Source: Taiwanofungus camphoratus
Taxonomy: Eukaryota > Basidiomycota > Agaricomycetes > Polyporales > Taiwanofungaceae
Direction: 5' to 3'
Length of the DNA: 64,000 bases
NCBI GenBank assembly: GCA_003999685.1
Contig: CP021222.1
Coordinates: 3,100,001-3,164,000, forward strand
Numbering within the stretch: position 1 is the stretch's first letter; each line of letters begins with the position of its first letter. A program made the position numbers and the translations under genes. The notes under the pieces were generated by a model, which was not told the DNA's origin, searched no databases, and saw nothing but the letters and a program-made list of their open reading frames with translations. Of this stretch, positions 37,932 to 47,792 are shown piece after piece.

Positions 37932-40900
37932 TTATTCGACTGGTTTGGGAGGGAGTGGTGGGGGTGGGCCAGGCGTAGGGATTGTATTTCCATTAGAATC
38001 GATTAAATCCGCACTGAACGAAGATAGGATAAGCTCTGTCTTCAAGGAACCTGTAAGACCAGGTTTTTCCTTATCCATTGCTTCTAACCGTGCATAAGTG
38101 CGTTTGTCTTCTTCCTGTGTCTCTTCGATGTACTGTTTCGGAGGACGTGGCATAAGAGGTGGCAGCGGAGGTGGCGGTGTGGATGGTTCTTGTAGCAGAG
38201 AACCATTCATATTGACATCGTTTGTAGGCAGTGGAGGAGAGAGCGGCGCTGATACTATGCCATTAGGTTGACCAGCCCGCTCCTCTGCCTCGTACATAGC
38301 TTTCAGTCTTGCCTTCTCTTCTGCTGCTGTCATTGGACGGGAGCCACCCGCCATACCAGGCGATTGCGGAGGAGTGGGTATGGGACGCGAGCCACTGCTG
38401 GGCGGGGACGGAGAAGGACGAATACCATTGCTACGTGGTGGCGGTGCCGGAGGACCGGCGGCAGCGAGTGCTGCTGCATCTTGTGTTTCAAATCTTCTCC
38501 GCAGCATCTCCTTCTCAGCTGCAGCACTTGAAAGTGATGTGGACGATGCCGGAAGGGCTGCAAGCGGAGGACTGGATGCGTAGGAGTCGAACGCCGCTAA
38601 TGGTGAGAGCTGCGGAGAGCCGACTGCGCCGAGACGAGCGGCATTGGCCACCGCAGCCGCATCTTGCGCCTCATAAGCACGGCGTAACTTCTCCTTCTCA
38701 GATAAATATGATGGTTGCGACGAGGACGGGATGAATGCAGGTGGTAAGTCATCAGCTACAAGGGCTGGCGGAGGTGGAGAAACAGGTGTAGAGGGGTAAA
38801 GAGCGTCGTATGGTATGGGTACAGCTGGAGGCGATTGAGAACTCATCCCATAAGTAACACCCTGGGTACGTTCCACAGCAGCTTTCGCTTCGTGATATCG
38901 TTTCAATGCAGCCTTCTCTTCCTCTGCTGAAGGGTATTGCGGGGTAGGACTTTTGATGGGTGTGCGCTGTGGCGGTTGTAAAGAAGAACTACCAGCCCCG
39001 TTTGAGGAATCTCTGGCAAGTGTGGATACTGCGGACTCTGACCTGGTGAGTGAATCACCATGCCCGTGCGTCGATGACGGCGGTGAAATACCGCCTGAGC
39101 TACTCAAACCCTGCGTGCGCGCCACAGCAGCTTGAGCCTGATGGAAGAGCCTAGCCTTTTCTTCCTCAGCCGTAGGCCACGGAGTAGACTTCAGTTTCGG
39201 TGAAGCCATAGATGTCGTTTGTGATGGAGAATCGGTGGACTGCACATTTACATGAGCAACGATCAATAAACGGGAAGAATATTACATACACTGGTAGGGC
39301 TTCGCGGGCGAGAAATGCCCTGTATGCGTTCCACATTAGCTACGGCGGTCTCATAAAGGCGCTGCTTCTCTTCCTCGGCAGATATCCACCCAGGTCTGGT
39401 AGACGGTGCCCTCGTGGCACGGCCAGCGTGCTCGCGTTCCGCCTTTGCATACTCTTCCGCCTCGTGATCGTTCAAGTTCGCTACAGTCAACCGGTTGCTT
39501 GCACTCTGTGCCCTCGCGCTGCCCAGGCGTGGTCGCGCAGCTGTGACACTATCATTTGCGAACTGACTCATCACTCGGGCGGCATTCATAGAGCCACTAG
39601 CGACTGCCTGGGTACCCCCGATCGTCTGGACAGCATAATTATTCGCTTGGGCACCACCGTAGGAAGACGACTCGGCACTCGAAGCCTGATGAACGCTCAA
39701 CCCTTTGGCGGGCTCTGTAGTTCGGTTGACGCCGAATTCGTCTGGTTTGTTAGAGCCAGCGAATCCGTTTGTCCGTTCCATGGGCGCCGTGTTGGACTGC
39801 CCAACAGGGGAACGGACGGGCATAGCATCGGCATCGACGGCCGAGTAGGGGTGTGGTTGAGCAAGCGGTGGGTGGCTTGCACCTGATTGTGTGCTGGCCT
39901 GAGTATCTGGACGGACCTTAGACTGTGTGGTTTCAGAAGATGGTGGTGTCGTCGGTTTCAACAAACGATCAGCTCCCGCGGGTCCAGGTAAAGAGACGTT
40001 GGGAGCCGGGCCAATCCGCCTAGGAGAAGACAACGAGGATGATCAGGATGACCAAAGCTAGAGGGAGTAAAATATATACCTCATCGCTTCCAGTGATACA
40101 GACCTGCAACGTAAGACGTTAAGAAGGTTGAGTACACGATAAACAACGGCGAACAAACCTCGGCCAATTGGACACAACCACTGGAAGATCTAAAGTGACC
40201 GACTGCCCAGTTCCCAGAAGCGCCTTGACTTGCAATACGTACATGATGTCAATATGCCTCGCTGCATTAAGCGTTGCAGAGGTATGGTGGGGTGGCACCG
40301 TGACTGTCAGTTCCGCTTTATGCTGTGTGCCGCCATATAACGTAACATTCACAGGCACCTTCCGCTCGCTGATGTTGTTGACCTTGACCTGAGGCGCACC
40401 CTTCTTACCCGTCGTGTGGGGGCTGGCGCGGAACACCGTCGTCTCCCGCAGTGCAAATTCGAATCCGCGTAACATGTGAGTCTGCAGAGGCTGAGCCTTG
40501 ACTGTAGCCATGACGACAATGCGGTCGCCCGGCCCATAGCAAGTGTGCGATCGGTCGACGGTGAGCGTCACTCCGTCCTCAGCGTGCTGGCGCGTCTCGT
40601 GCTGCGAATACACTGGCCAGGTCGGGTGCAGTTCATGCTTGTCGATAATGATGGTCGACGAAGCAGAGGTGACGGTAGATTTATCACGGCGAAGCAGTCC
40701 TCTAACAGCACGCTGGGTCACGCGTAAAACTTGGAGGTCGAGTTGAGAGCCTACCTTTTCCCCTTGACACACACTGTAGCAATAAGTTCGTACTTGATAC
40801 CCGCTAGTGATGTCATGCTTAATCAGTGAGGGCAGAATTGACAACGGAGCTCGTTCACTTACCACCTTTCTCCAGGGCAATGCTTGGAGGTATTGATTCA

Positions 40901-41767: not shown

Positions 41768-43430
41768 ATGGCCGCTACCTTCATCGGGTTTGTTCTTTCT
41801 CTTCGCACTTTGCGGTGCTTGTACTGATCATCCTTTGCACAGGAAGCCGATATCTCTCATCTCGCATTCAGATGTACGATACAGAGGTATACTGGCAGGT
41901 ATCGACCCTGCCGCGTCTACCATCCAACTCTCAAATGGTGTGTTGATTTGGCCAAGTAATTCCGGTGCTTTACTCAAAGGACGCGTCTTATGATGCAGTA
42001 TACTCAATGGGAACGGAGTCGAGGCGGTAAGTATGGGTTCCATCAGCGACGCATCTAATGATGAAGCATTACGGATGTAAACGAGCTGCAAGCTCGATTG
42101 TCCGAGAGCGCATAAACCCATGTGGATTTTTCCGTTGCCTTCCTTCTGACTTTCCTGCATTCTCCTTTGTCGTACGTATGAATCGCCTGCCGACAGCTGA
42201 CGTGTCGCCTCCAAACCTAGGCCACCAGAGCAATTCATCCCACCTGTGCAAGAGCCATATGCATACATCATTTTCCGCGCGTCAGAGGTGAAAGACCTAG
42301 CGGTAGATGATCCTGCACCAACGCGGCGAAACGTGCACGATGATCCAGCTGTTCTTGGGGTGAGCAGATTGTTGTTTTTGAACTTCGTTTGTGATGAAAC
42401 CATTGACGGATGTGAACGGGCCTCGAGCTCGCAAGTCCGAGAGCGCTTTATACGTGTGGATAACCCGTTGCCTTCCTTCTGACTACCTATATTTCAATGC
42501 ATACATTCTTTCTCATGTAACACCTATTCTAATTTCCTCATTCCTCAGGCTTCTGCACCCATGTTGAACAACAACGGATATCCTCCATACGCGCAACCAT
42601 TCCAGCAGCCGCCTGCGGGTCCTACAGTTGCTCAATCACAGTCTGCACAAGCTGCTCAATCCCGCCAGCCCAACTATACTGCATCTCAACAACCCACACA
42701 ACCATCTGCGTCAGCGTCGCAACAAAGAGCTGCATCGTCAGCACAGCAGGCTTCGCAGGGTACAGCAGGCGCTGGATCACCCACCGCCGGCGGTCGGAAC
42801 GGGCGCAATAACTCGGTCCATTCTGCTACCGCCTCCCTGGAGACCGTCGAGCGTGCTTTGGGGGATCTCCGCGTGTCCAGCACCACCGCCAATGGGACGC
42901 CGGCGGGGCGCAGCGGGGGCGGGCGGCGCGGGAGGCACCAGGAGCTCAAGGCAGGCGACCTTCGCGTGCCCACGACGGACTTTGACTTCCAGAGCTCGAA
43001 CGCACGCTTCGACAAGGCCGCGCTGGGGCCCTCGCCGCGCGGGACGCCGAAGCTTGGCAGCGACGAGAATGGTACCGCGGAGAAGGAGGAGGCGAAGGAC
43101 GGTGCTGGTAAGGAGAAGGGCGGCGAGAAGGACACGTCGTCCGAGTCCGCGTATAACCCAAAGAAGTCGTTCTTCGACTCGCTATCGTCTGGGAGCAACG
43201 GGCCGGCGGCGGATACGCGCGGTGGCAGGGGCGGTGGTCGGCGTGGAGGCGGGCGGAATAGGAGGGAGGAGGAAAGGGAGAGAAACGTTGCGACGTTCGG
43301 GGAGCCCGGTGGTGTTGGACTCATGGGTCCGGGTGCGTATGTTGGTGGATGGGGCGGGTATGGGAGGAGGGGTGGAGGAGGCCGGGGACGGAGGGGCGCT
43401 GCAGCTGGTGCTGCAGTTGGTGCGCGTTAG
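41768..43430 (+). CDS. SCD6: Scd6/Lsm14-family mRNP protein (LSm, FDF and RGG domains)
   Basis: A P-body protein that represses translation and promotes decapping. The ATG at 41768 gives MAATFIGKPISLISHSDVRY, then RGILAGIDPAASTIQLSNVY and SMGTESRRPPEQFIPPVQEP, ending the LSm domain with YAYIIFRASEVKDLAVDD. A Gln/Ser-rich linker precedes the FDF motif TTDFDFQSSNARFDKA, an FFD box (YNPKKSFFDSLSSG), a TFG box (NVATFGEPGGVG) and a C-terminal RGG/Gly-rich tail. TAG is at 43428-43430. Two introns, 42027-42220 and 42360-42548, are about 190 bp, far longer than most in this window, and each carries a box C/D snoRNA-like sequence. The exon between them holds the end of the LSm domain. Codons in the last exon are strongly GC-rich. 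Confidence 0.93.
42058..42149 (+). ncRNA. Candidate intronic box C/D snoRNA, copy 1
   Basis: Inside SCD6 intron 42027-42220. Box C ATGATGA at 42058-42064 and box D CTGA at 42146-42149 are 92 nt apart end to end. The bases just before box D (CCGTTGCCTTCCTT) pair with AAGGAAGGCAGC, which I recall as an invariant 18S rRNA segment: 10 Watson-Crick pairs, a G-U pair, then one more. Under the D+5 rule the target is the A of AAGGA. By rough counting this is near yeast 18S A420, the snR52 site. Box D ends 71 nt before the 3' splice site, the usual spacing for intron-processed snoRNAs. No strong terminal stem is visible. Confidence 0.7.
42391..42482 (+). ncRNA. Candidate intronic box C/D snoRNA, copy 2
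   Basis: Inside SCD6 intron 42360-42548. Box C GTGATGA (42391-42397) and box D CTGA (42479-42482) are also 92 nt end to end. It is collinear with copy 1: shared TGATGAA, ACGGATGT, GTCCGAGAGCGC, TGTGGAT and a 19-nt exact block CCGTTGCCTTCCTTCTGAC (42132-42150 and 42465-42483). The 18S guide is therefore identical. Box D ends 66 nt before the 3' splice site. The rest of the two introns is unrelated. Confidence 0.7.
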
Positions 43431-43734: not shown

Positions 43735-44599
43735 TCATGACCGTCCCGTTCTTTGCCTGAACGCTGACCTTCTCCGCCTTCCAACAGAGTTCCATCCCAA
43801 AGTCCATACCGCCATGAACAGCCCCCATGGTGGAACGAGCCAACTGAGTCTCCACGACCACCCTGCCTGCGTGTGCAGCTTCGCTACGAGCGAACCGACC
43901 TGCGTCTCAAGGTCTTGTGGCGAGCCCGAGTTGTCGATGACGATGTCGGCGTGCTGCACCTTTTCCGCGATGGGCAGCTGTGCATTGACGCGTGCAGACG
44001 CGTCCGCGTGTGAGGAGCCGTCGCGTGCCATGAGCCGCTGGAGCTGTATCTCCGGCGAGCTGCAGTGGACGCGGTCATAGTATTATCCAAAAGAGCACGA
44101 CAGGGTCTTCCTTAGGGTCAGTTGGACAGACAGGATCGAATGAGGCTCACCAGTACACCACCACAACAGACGCGACCCACTTCCACAGGCCTCCTTCGAT
44201 GAGCAGCGGCACGTCCAGGACGCACAGGCGCTCCCCCCTCCACCAGCACCGCAGCACCTCCCACAGCATCGCACGCGTCACCGCGGGGTGCACGATGCTG
44301 TTGAGCTTCCGCCTCTGCGCCTCGTCTGCGAACACGACCGCGCCGAGCTTCGCGCGGTCGAGCGTGCCGTCTGGCCGGAGGACTCCCCCGCCAAAATGTG
44401 CGACGATCTTCTTAAGCGCAGGTGTGCCCGGGAGCACGACCTGCCGCGCAAGGACGTCTGCGTCGATGATGGGGAGCTGGTGCGCGCGGAGAAGCGTCGA
44501 GACCGTTGACTTGCCTGTGGCGATTCCGCCAGTGAGGCCAATGACTGTCCGTATTCTGAGACAGGGATGCTCTTGATAGAGGGAGCACATACCTAGCAT
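43735..44599 (-). CDS. CAB5: Dephospho-CoA kinase
   Basis: Phosphorylates the 3'-hydroxyl of dephospho-CoA, the last step of coenzyme A synthesis. The P-loop GLTGGIATGKSTVSTLLR is followed by PIIDADVLARQVVLPGTPAL, HFGGGVLRPDGTLDRAKLGA, VVFADEAQRRKLNSIVHPAV and LDVPLLIEGGLWKWV. After an intron come QLQRLMARDGSS and NSGSPQDLE, closing the kinase fold. A hydrophobic C-terminal stretch (WSWRLSWLVPPWGLFMAVWT) suggests membrane anchoring, as in related fungal enzymes. Reading from 44599 adds about 18 extra residues before the P-loop, and the exact N terminus is uncertain. The gene converges with SCD6 and lies upstream of, and in the same direction as, nothing else on its strand within 300 bp. Confidence 0.9.
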
Positions 44600-44916: not shown

Positions 44917-47792
44917 CTATGCCTTTGCGCTCCCGAAGAGCATCTCTCGCTTCAGACCAATTTCGTCCCGCAGCATCGCAATCCTGCTATCCAGCCGCGA
45001 CGACAGGTCCACCTGCTGCGTAGCCAGCGCAAGCGCCTTCTCGAGCCGCCCTTCCGCCTCGCGCAGCGCCTTCGCCCACACCTCCCTCTTCTCGCTGTCC
45101 GTCATAGCCTTCTCACTTGCACCGTTTGCTGCAACGTCCTTCTCCTCCGCCTTCTCGATATCCGAGCCTACCGCAGAGCCTGCGCCCGTGCGCGCCTCCG
45201 CCTCCTTTAGCTCGAGCACCGCCAGCTCAAAGAGTGCGACGCCGCCCACCCACGTACTCACCTTCACCGCGCTCTGCCGCGCATGCGCGTCCACGAGGAA
45301 CGCGCGTGCGGGGCCGAGCGCGCCTGCTGTCCTGTGGTTGATGCCAAGTAGCAAGGAGCGGATGGCGAACTCGTCAGGCGTGTCGAGATCCGGTACCGGC
45401 TTTGAGACGGACGCGGGCGTAGCGGCGGGGACATATGGCGACGTGATCGTTGGGGCGGGGGCAAGGCCACCTAGCTCGGCGATGTGTGCGAGCGCGACGT
45501 CCCTGTTTATCCGCGCATGGGTGTTCCAGACTACGTGCGCAAAACGTCAGCTGCATTCGCGCGTGGTCCGCATACGACTTACATATACCGATCTCTGGAG
45601 AAGGGAAGTGTGAGCACGGCGCGGGGAAGAGCATAGAGCGGCCTTGCCTTCCGCAGGGCTGATTCTGATACATTGCGTGAAGTCATCCTCCACACCAGTC
45701 ATCCTTTTCTGCTTCTCCTTGTAGAATGTCACTGCGCCCCGGGTCAGAATCCCAGATCTCTTTTAATGCAAAACCGCGACTCACGCTTCTTCTTGATGAA
45801 CACCTCGGTAGGCAAATCCTTCCCGCCAAGCTTCTTTTTCTCTAGCAGGGCAGGGATCGCGTCGAGCAATTCCTGCGCCCTCTTGTGGTTTCTCAGCGAG
45901 ACGTAGCAGCCCGCCGCGATGAAGTAGTACGTCCCGTGGCTCCAGCTGTTGATCTCCGTCATGCGCAGAAACATTTCCGCTGCCTCCTCATAACGCCGCT
46001 GCGAGAGCAGCGTCCACGCCAGCTCGAAGATCAACTGGGTTCATCGGTAGCCGTTCACGTCAATTCCTACTGTCAGTTCGTGAGACACCACTCACCAGGC
46101 CGTCCGCCTGCACGAATGTGTGCGGCCGTCCGGGTGCGAGGCCGTCCTGTAGCACCTGAATCGCGCCCTCTGCGTCGAACGACATCCGCAGGATCTTCGC
46201 CTGCCCGCCAGTCGCGCATCCGACGCATGAGCTTCCGCAATCCTCAGCACTAATTGATATATAAGCACGGCACGCACTCGGTTGAGAATCCAAAGCGAGC
46301 CTGCAGGGTAACGCGCCGAGACGCTGTGTGTGTGCATGCGTAAGAGTTATGTATGACGCCGTAACAGACGAGGGAAACAAGGCACACCTGTCGACGATGG
46401 CGCGGTACTGCCGAATGATCTGCGCCTCGTCCGCCTGGTACCCCGCGAGCAGCAGCACAACGCCGTGGTACGTCATTAGCGCTAGCCTGGTTGGTGGGAA
46501 GGACGTCACAATCCATAAGCGCGACGAATATATAGAGCAAACGTACCCCGCGAACACACCGTGCACGTCCGCCCGCGCCGCGGAGACAGCCAGCGCCCGC
46601 AACGCGAGCTTGCGGTCCGACGCAAACCCAAGGAAGCCCACCACGCCGCGGATCTTTGCGGGCAGTAGCGAGAACACGAGATTGAACAGCCTGTGCGCCG
46701 ATAGCAAGTCAGGCGGCTCGCCGAGAATACGGCACGATGGGCTGGAGGTGAGCGGACTCACCCGTATCCTAGGGGAGTGTCGATTAGTGATCGAGTAGCT
46801 GGAAGGCGAGGCATACACACCGAACGCCGTCCCGCTCATGATCAACTCGTCTACACTCCCCTCTGCCGCCTCCACTGCCGCGCTCGCCGTGGAGACACTG
46901 CTGCTCGACCCGCCGAACCGGCCAAAGATGCTTACGCGCGAGCTCGTCTTCGAGTTCGTTGTCGAGGGCGTGCTGGTTGTCGTCGTGCTTGTTGTGATGG
47001 TGATGACGGAGGACGCGGAGGAGATGGAAGAGGCGGACGAGGCGGAGTTGACGCTAGACGTGCGCGAGACGGGGCCGGGGGAGGCCGGTGCCGAGGTAGG
47101 GTAATGCCCGAGGCCATGCGGGTACACAGTTTTGAACAATCTGTGTTAGGTATCCCGGTGAGCAGCGAGGAGAAGGGAGGGGAAAGCGGAGGGACGCACT
47201 TTGAGAACTTGGAGTGTGCGCTGGGACGGGGTTTGGATCAGACAGGACAAGCACAGAAGAGAAGTGTGCCTTGCCTGTTCATCGCGTACACACACTGGAT
47301 ATAACCCATGTATGACTCGCTGGCCGCATCGCGCTGCACGTCATTTTATACGAATCAGAGCACAAGACAGGCATGTGCTGACCTGAGCGCGTGGTTGAGG
47401 CCTTGCAGGATGATCGCATCGGAGAGGAGCAGGTCCCACTCTGTTCCCGGCGGGAATTGTGTTGTCTGGCGCGTGCCCTTGCTCGCCTTGAGCTGCTTCC
47501 TAGCGCCTGCCTCGGAAGCAGCGAGACAGCGGGCAGCCTCTGCCATCAGGCCTGTCTAAGCACAGATACAGGGTTTGTGAGCTATGTCGCGAGAACGCAA
47601 GCCAAAGCATCTCACCTCCATTCCGAGCGCAGCCTCGAGGAAGGCACAGGCACCAAGCCCGAGTGTATGGAAGGGGGAATCGGCGGGGGCAAAGGACTGG
47701 CGGGCCTTGTGTAGCTCGTTGGAGAATAAGTAATCGAAGCCGGTGGTCGCTGAGCGTAGGTTACGCTGCGTCTCGTCTTCATTAGTGAACAT
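44917..47792 (-). CDS. IML2: Iml2/TTC39-family outer-membrane-type TPR protein
   Basis: Relatives include yeast Iml2 (clearance of inclusion bodies through lipid droplets) and metazoan TTC39. The ATG at 47792 gives [20 protein letters not shown], then [14 protein letters not shown] and [17 protein letters not shown] Ser/Thr-rich low-complexity insert (47,000-46,900) follows, then [80 protein letters not shown], then [20 protein letters not shown]. It ends in a coiled coil ([20 protein letters not shown]). The order FGF, helical repeats and RxxE-rich tail matches the family. Several introns interrupt it. An in-frame GTG upstream (47843) is not a likely start. The GC-rich third positions contrast with the AT-rich spacer beyond 47,850. 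Confidence 0.85.

What the first reader, a model, noticed from the sequence alone, without database searches (positions are those of the whole stretch)
42027..42548. Two paralogous box C/D snoRNAs in neighbouring SCD6 introns
Seen: two adjacent introns of ~190 bp share a collinear ~92-nt core bounded by RTGATGA and CTGA, with a 19-nt identical block at the box D end; the rest of the introns is unrelated. The 14 nt before box D match a conserved 18S segment (AAGGAAGGCAGC) by complementarity. Box D sits 71 and 66 nt from the 3' splice sites. Known: intronic box C/D snoRNAs show this spacing, and yeast snR52 methylates 18S near A420. Inference: a local duplication placed twin snoRNAs in a gene for an RNA-decay protein, with an identical main guide but diverged internal sequence (copy 1 alone has TAAACCCA, complementary to the 25S A-loop), so the twins may have different second targets.
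Basis: partly seen in the sequence, partly recalled or inferred. Interest (0 to 1): 0.85.

Follow-up and report, generated by a model that had tools for sequence, protein, structure and literature searches.

The report
Twin snR52 guide RNAs in introns
Two neighbouring introns of one fungal gene each carry a copy of a well-known small RNA (snR52) that tells the cell where to put a methyl group on ribosomal RNA; it is a local duplicate of a known RNA, useful for annotation but not a new kind of system.

Summary
Introns 3 and 4 of an SCD6/LSM14 gene each hold a 92-nt box C/D core, 72 of 90 aligned bases identical, with unrelated flanks. Rfam names both: copy 1 is snoZ13_snr52 at 78.2 bits (cut-off 47); copy 2 matches the same family at 44.4 bits, below the cut-off but E 3.7e-5 in the whole window. 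The guide before box D pairs with 18S 416-427 and puts A420, the published snR52 target, at the fifth position. If either copy addresses the A-loop it is copy 2, with an imperfect 11-nt element in register for U2921, yeast snR52's second target, beside a D'-like TCGA; that lead is weak. Several snR52 copies are in print for Pleurotus, and paralogs in adjacent introns are reported in vertebrates. New member of a known kind; low interest.

The parts
41768..43430 (+). SCD6/LSM14 host gene, exons 41768-41787, 41843-41937, 41999-42026, 42221-42359, 42549-43430 (387 aa)
   Evidence: introns 3 and 4 set by eye (GT/AG, frame kept); for introns 1 and 2, 12 GT/AG combinations were tried, 4 of 12 stayed open, and the one with an Sm-like N-terminus was kept; only this model was sent to Pfam
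42027..42220 (+). intron 3 (194 nt), host of copy 1
   Evidence: GTAAGT...CTAG, reading frame kept
42049..42159 (+). copy 1 snR52 (RF00335 model extent)
   Evidence: cmscan 78.2 bits, gathering 47, E 7.2e-14
42058..42064 (+). copy 1 box C ATGATGA
   Evidence: sequence
42113..42120 (+). copy 1 TAAACCCA, claimed A-loop guide; really complementary to 25S U2949-A2956, expected by chance
42120..42127 (+). copy 1 probable C' (ATGTGGAT)
   Evidence: inferred from position and resemblance to RTGATGA (5 of 7); TGTGGAT shared by both copies
42134..42145 (+). copy 1 D guide GTTGCCTTCCTT, target 18S A420
   Evidence: 12-bp duplex with 18S 416-427 of L032
42146..42149 (+). copy 1 box D CTGA
   Evidence: sequence
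42360..42548 (+). intron 4 (189 nt), host of copy 2
   Evidence: GTGAGC...CTCAG, reading frame kept
42383..42490 (+). copy 2 snR52 (RF00335 model extent)
   Evidence: cmscan 44.4 bits, below gathering 47; E 3.7e-5 in 64 kb
42391..42397 (+). copy 2 box C GTGATGA
   Evidence: sequence
42412..42426 (+). copy 2 candidate D' guide GTGAACGGGCC plus D'-like TCGA, in +5 register with 25S U2921
   Evidence: 10 of 11 pairs, two of them G-U (one at U2921), one mismatch; 20 of 3000 shuffles as good anywhere, 0 of 3000 with exact CTGA/TCGA, 4 of 3000 with one mismatch in the box; other stretches of held rRNA score nearly as well
42454..42461 (+). copy 2 probable C' (GTGTGGAT)
   Evidence: inferred as for copy 1
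42467..42478 (+). copy 2 D guide, identical to copy 1
42479..42482 (+). copy 2 box D CTGA
   Evidence: sequence

Best explanation
Both introns encode an snR52/Z13-family box C/D snoRNA, made by local duplication of one snoRNA unit between neighbouring introns. Splicing and debranching of the SCD6 pre-mRNA, then exonuclease trimming, would release two ~90-nt RNAs. Bound by the Nop1/Nop56/Nop58/Snu13 core they would use the shared guide before box D to 2'-O-methylate 18S A420 (yeast numbering). The copies are largely redundant. Shown: sequence, family membership of copy 1, homology of copy 2, guide register, host gene. Inferred from general knowledge of intronic box C/D snoRNAs: expression, processing, protein core, methylation, redundancy.
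For: Rfam: in the whole window at E up to 1 these two are the only matches listed for 4227 families. The two cores are homologous with unrelated flanks. The D guide gives a 12-bp duplex (11 Watson-Crick, 1 G-U) with 18S 416-427, fifth base from box D = A420; a shuffled 12-mer in that place does as well in 0 of 2000 (copy 1) and 6 of 2000 (copy 2) trials. snR52 is listed for 18S Am420 (table passage of PMC8307265); N. crassa CD42 is listed as intronic, counterpart of snR52, 18S Am417 by the D guide (table passage of PMC2780460). The guide plus box D is identical in both copies.
Against: No expression data. No rRNA of this organism was available; the target was read on 18S of another eukaryote. 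Copy 2 misses Rfam's cut-off (44.4 vs 47). No terminal stem stands out: shuffles pairing as well, of 500, were 295/172/366 for copy 1 and 67/108/58 for copy 2 over 6/15/30 nt. Folds are no better than shuffles (z -0.09 and 0.18; interiors alone -0.90 and -0.22). Without the register constraint the best 18S duplex is not exceptional (37 and 50 of 500 shuffles as good). No relative with the same host gene could be examined.
Confidence: 0.88

Rival explanations
1. Copy 1 is the working snR52; copy 2 is a decaying or unexpressed duplicate.
For: Copy 2 scores below the Rfam cut-off; it departs from the family consensus in the stretch between GCGC and C' where copy 1 is close to it.
Against: Copy 2 keeps an exact C box, D box and the 20-nt guide block, the 92-nt length and the 31-nt distance from the intron start, which drift would not favour.
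Confidence: 0.2
2. The twins have split tasks: both guide A420, and copy 2 alone also guides U2921 of the 25S A-loop through a D' guide GTGAACGGGCC next to TCGA.
For: Exact +5 register, 10 of 11 pairs; 0 of 3000 shuffles match this with an exact CTGA/TCGA box. Yeast snR52 guides U2921 (passages). UCGA is named as a possible D' box of snR13 (passages of PMC5389607).
Against: The target base would sit in a G-U pair, the next pair is G-U, then comes a mismatch. TCGA was added to the accepted boxes after it was seen. Among the rRNA stretches held, others score 20.8 against 21.6, and a TCGA-preceding stretch in copy 1 reaches 22.6 on an unrelated 18S site. The Rfam consensus, in the stretch scanned, scores at most 14 on this target. 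Most of 25S was not searched.
Confidence: 0.12
3. One reading: copy 1 alone targets the A-loop through TAAACCCA.
For: An exact 8-nt complement exists in the 25S stretch held.
Against: It lies in the peptidyl-transferase loop at U2949-A2956, not in the A-loop; no D' box follows in register; shuffles of the same stretch give 2.8 perfect 8-nt matches on average in the rRNA held, two were observed.
Confidence: 0.02
4. Chance resemblance; not snoRNAs.
For: None beyond lack of expression data.
Against: Rfam E 7.2e-14 and 3.7e-5; intron alignment 96 vs a maximum of 41 in 2000 shuffles.
Confidence: 0.01

Closest known systems
snR52 / snoZ13 (Rfam RF00335), S. cerevisiae snR52 and N. crassa CD42
   Same: boxes, D guide, 18S A420 target; the N. 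crassa copy is listed as intronic
   Different: two copies in one gene here; the yeast second target U2921 has no convincing guide in copy 1 and only an imperfect one in copy 2
snoZ13_snr52 copies of Pleurotus ostreatus (PMC5040776, Table 2)
   Same: three copies in a mushroom; two on one strand with starts 254 bp apart (scaffold46 213071-213178 and 213325-213430)
   Different: those two are listed 646 and 394 bp from the boundary of g13123, the third in an intron of g8490; the genes are not named in what I saw, so orthology with this locus is untested
snoRNA paralogs in adjacent introns by intragenic duplication (chicken, PMC2653536 passages)
   Same: duplication into a neighbouring intron of the same host with guide regions kept
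   Different: vertebrate hosts and other families

Membership tests
snR52/Z13 (RF00335), copy 1 | score at or above Rfam gathering threshold | tested here: met
   78.2 vs 47 bits
snR52/Z13 (RF00335), copy 2 | score at or above Rfam gathering threshold | tested here: not met
   44.4 vs 47 bits, full-length match, E 3.7e-5; homology to copy 1 is separate evidence, so it is called an snR52 paralog, not a curated-threshold member
snR52/Z13 | D guide with 18S A420 at the fifth base from box D | tested here: met
   both copies, on the 18S of L032, not of this organism
snR52/Z13 | D' guide for 25S U2921 (yeast; the N. crassa CD42 row shows only 18S Am417) | tested here: inconclusive
   copy 1: 414 of 3000 shuffles as good; copy 2: 20 of 3000, with G-U at the target
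box C/D snoRNA | box C RTGATGA and box D CTGA | tested here: met
   exact in both
box C/D snoRNA | terminal stem bringing C and D together | tested here: inconclusive
   pairing not clearly better than shuffles at 6, 15 or 30 nt
box C/D snoRNA | internal C'/D' motif | tested here: inconclusive
   C'-like [AG]TGTGGAT in both; no unambiguous D'. In yeast too the snR52 C'/D' motif is listed among those lacking the first pair of stem I (PMC8413462 passage)
box C/D snoRNA | stable RNA bound by the Nop1/Nop56/Nop58/Snu13 core, and 2'-O-methyl at the target | not testable with these tools
   needs RNA data
SCD6/LSM14 (host) | N-terminal LSM14 domain and FDF domain | tested here: met
   Pfam 91.3 and 32.9 bits over cut-offs 30 and 26.1; a third, overlapping match to SM-ATX (23.1) is below its cut-off 29.8

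The most novel reading that the evidence does not exclude
The duplication let one twin (copy 2) specialise in the 25S A-loop base U2921 while both keep 18S A420, so that one decay-factor gene yields guides for both ribosomal subunits and the yeast double-guide function is spread over two introns.
Probability: 0.1. Interest if true: 0.4.

Novelty: new member of a known kind. Interest (0 to 1): 0.2.

Why it matters
It adds a clean case of snoRNA duplication into a neighbouring intron in a fungus, with a host (SCD6) that is not a ribosomal-protein gene. If the copies differ in a second target it would be a natural example of guide RNAs dividing work between the two ribosomal subunits. As it stands it mainly improves annotation.

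Tried and rejected
Own-genome search for further copies: no genome is held. Relatives in viral contigs: 22 stretches matched GTTGCCTTCCTTCTGA; 21 of 22 have no TGATGA in the upstream sequence looked at (90 nt, less for L015), and the remaining one (L001) was judged a chance hit by eye; no covariance search was run on them. SCD6 N-terminus in viral contigs: 11 pattern matches, none confirmed. Plasmids: no match at 1e-5. snR52 pattern in genome contigs: 0. RF00335 in the assemblies that carry stray eukaryotic rDNA: 0 of 7 searched, 3 of the 10 loci not held; the control rang nowhere, so this shows nothing. An 18S pattern in viral contigs: 0. A-loop target of TAAACCCA: rejected. Extra 18S pairing of GGATGT(G) with 18S 409-415, next to the guide target: present in both copies, but 751 and 271 of 1000 shuffles do as well, so not claimed. 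Stable fold: not supported. Weak matches of the same region to snR56, Afu_190 and bxd_1 (E 3.4, 9.6, 5.9 in 1.5 kb) taken as chance. Antisense ORF 41828-42403: no Pfam match. Whether fungal surveys name SCD6 as a snoRNA host: PMC8476143, PMC3596301 and PMC3511168 were searched for terms only; the two asked about Scd6 (the first two) do not contain it. PMC5824354 is not held. PMC4105744 has no mention of snR52.

Full report
What is there. The host gene at 41768-43430 (+) splices into a 387-aa ORF with five exons (introns 3 and 4 set by eye, introns 1 and 2 chosen among 4 open models of 12 tried). The protein has the LSM14 (Scd6-like Sm) and FDF domains of SCD6/LSM14. Introns 3 (42027-42220) and 4 (42360-42548) each contain a 92-nt core from box C to box D. 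The two cores align with 72 of 90 aligned bases identical and four single-base gaps. The local alignment of the introns scores 96; the best of 2000 shuffled pairs scores 41. The 5' flanks are unrelated (1000 of 1000 shuffles as good) and the 3' flanks are not significantly alike (192 of 1000). So the repeated unit is the snoRNA, not the whole intron. Both C boxes begin 31 nt after the intron start, and D boxes end 71 and 66 nt before the 3' splice sites.

Family. At gathering thresholds Rfam finds one RNA in the whole 64 kb: copy 1 as RF00335 snoZ13_snr52, 78.2 bits against 47. With E up to 1 there are exactly two matches in the window, copy 1 and copy 2; copy 2 scores 44.4 bits, E 3.7e-5, full length, below the cut-off. 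Copy 2 is therefore called an snR52 paralog on homology to copy 1 and on a near-threshold match, not on the curated threshold.

Main guide. The 12 nt before box D, identical in both copies, pair with 18S 416-427 of L032, an 1800-nt eukaryotic 18S found as stray sequence in a bacterial assembly. The fifth base from box D faces A420. Shuffled interiors give a 12-mer as good in that place in 0 of 2000 (copy 1) and 6 of 2000 (copy 2) trials. When the place is left free, 37 and 50 of 500 shuffles find some 18S duplex as good, so the strength lies in the register and the Rfam match, not in the duplex alone. Yeast snR52 is listed for 18S Am420 (PMC8307265, table passage); N. crassa CD42, intronic, is listed for 18S Am417 by its D guide and as the counterpart of snR52 (PMC2780460, table passage). 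The ten 18S loci were fetched with a pattern containing the target, so they are no independent test of its conservation. The window itself holds no rRNA by Rfam.

Second target. In the 25S stretch of L023 the complement TGGGTTTA starts 28 nt after the base that corresponds to U2921, that is at yeast U2949; the table in PMC2584109 equates E. coli 2552 with yeast 2921 and 2580 with 2949 (passage). That 2580-2587 is the peptidyl-transferase loop is recalled. The same stretch of copy 1, shuffled, has 2.8 perfect 8-nt complements on average in the 3201 letters of rRNA loci held (a few dozen letters of L023 in that set lie past its rRNA part); two were observed. No D' box follows in register. The claim is rejected.

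A tighter question is whether either copy addresses U2921, the known second target of yeast snR52 (PMC11121408 and PMC8307265 passages). Copy 1 offers nothing beyond chance (414 of 3000 shuffles as good). Copy 2 has GTGAACGGGCC directly before TCGA, with U2921 at the fifth base: 10 of 11 pairs, two of them G-U including the target base, one mismatch; 20 of 3000 shuffles do as well anywhere, none of 3000 with an exact CTGA or TCGA following, 4 of 3000 if one mismatch in the box is allowed. UCGA is described as a possible D' box of snR13 in PMC5389607 (passages). Against it: I accepted TCGA as a box after seeing it; a general scan gives other stretches of held rRNA 20.8 against 21.6, and a TCGA-preceding stretch in copy 1 reaches 22.6 on an unrelated 18S site; the Rfam consensus, in the stretch scanned, scores at most 14 on this target; and most of 25S was not searched. 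It is a lead, about one in ten.

What did not hold up. Extra pairing of the conserved GGATGT(G) with 18S just upstream of the target is there in both copies but no better than shuffles. Terminal stems are weak. Predicted folds are ordinary.

Known and new. The family, the target and intronic coding are known. Multiple copies in a mushroom are in print: Pleurotus ostreatus has three, two of them on one strand with starts 254 bp apart (PMC5040776, Table 2 as seen); Dictyophora rubrovolvata is listed with one (PMC10411574 passage). Whether the Pleurotus pair lies in SCD6 could not be checked. The chicken study states that almost all chicken snoRNA paralogs arose by intragenic duplication, with novel ones in adjacent introns (PMC2653536 passages). 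One search for papers with both 'intronic snoRNA' and 'Scd6' found none; that is one phrase search in an open-licence library and does not show the host is unreported.

Verdict. New member of a known kind.

Noticed in passing
L023:1-130 (IMG/VR contig IMGVR_UViG_3300009564_000091): A contig filed as viral begins with roughly 120-130 nt of eukaryotic 25S rRNA (A-loop and peptidyl-transferase loop) and then turns into other sequence, judged by eye: looks like a chimera.
   Followed up: partly
L024-L033: Ten contigs filed under prokaryote assemblies carry a eukaryotic 18S segment; five of the ten were scanned with Rfam and all five match the eukaryotic SSU model, so these assemblies look contaminated.
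   Followed up: partly
42058 and 42391: Both box C motifs begin exactly 31 nt after the intron start although the sequence in between is unrelated, hinting at a spacing constraint.
   Followed up: no
42100-42111 and 42435-42446: GTCCGAGAGCGC is identical in both copies and close to the Rfam consensus, yet no role was found for it; with CGGATGT (42072-42078, 42407-42413) it could form an internal stem.
   Followed up: partly
41828-42403 (-): 191-aa antisense ORF across SCD6 exons and introns, no Pfam match; probably mechanical.
   Followed up: partly
40119-40880 (-), 44147-44599 (-), 46060-47139 (-): Neighbouring ORFs match arrestin C-terminal domain, dephospho-CoA kinase and Iml2/TPR39.
   Followed up: no
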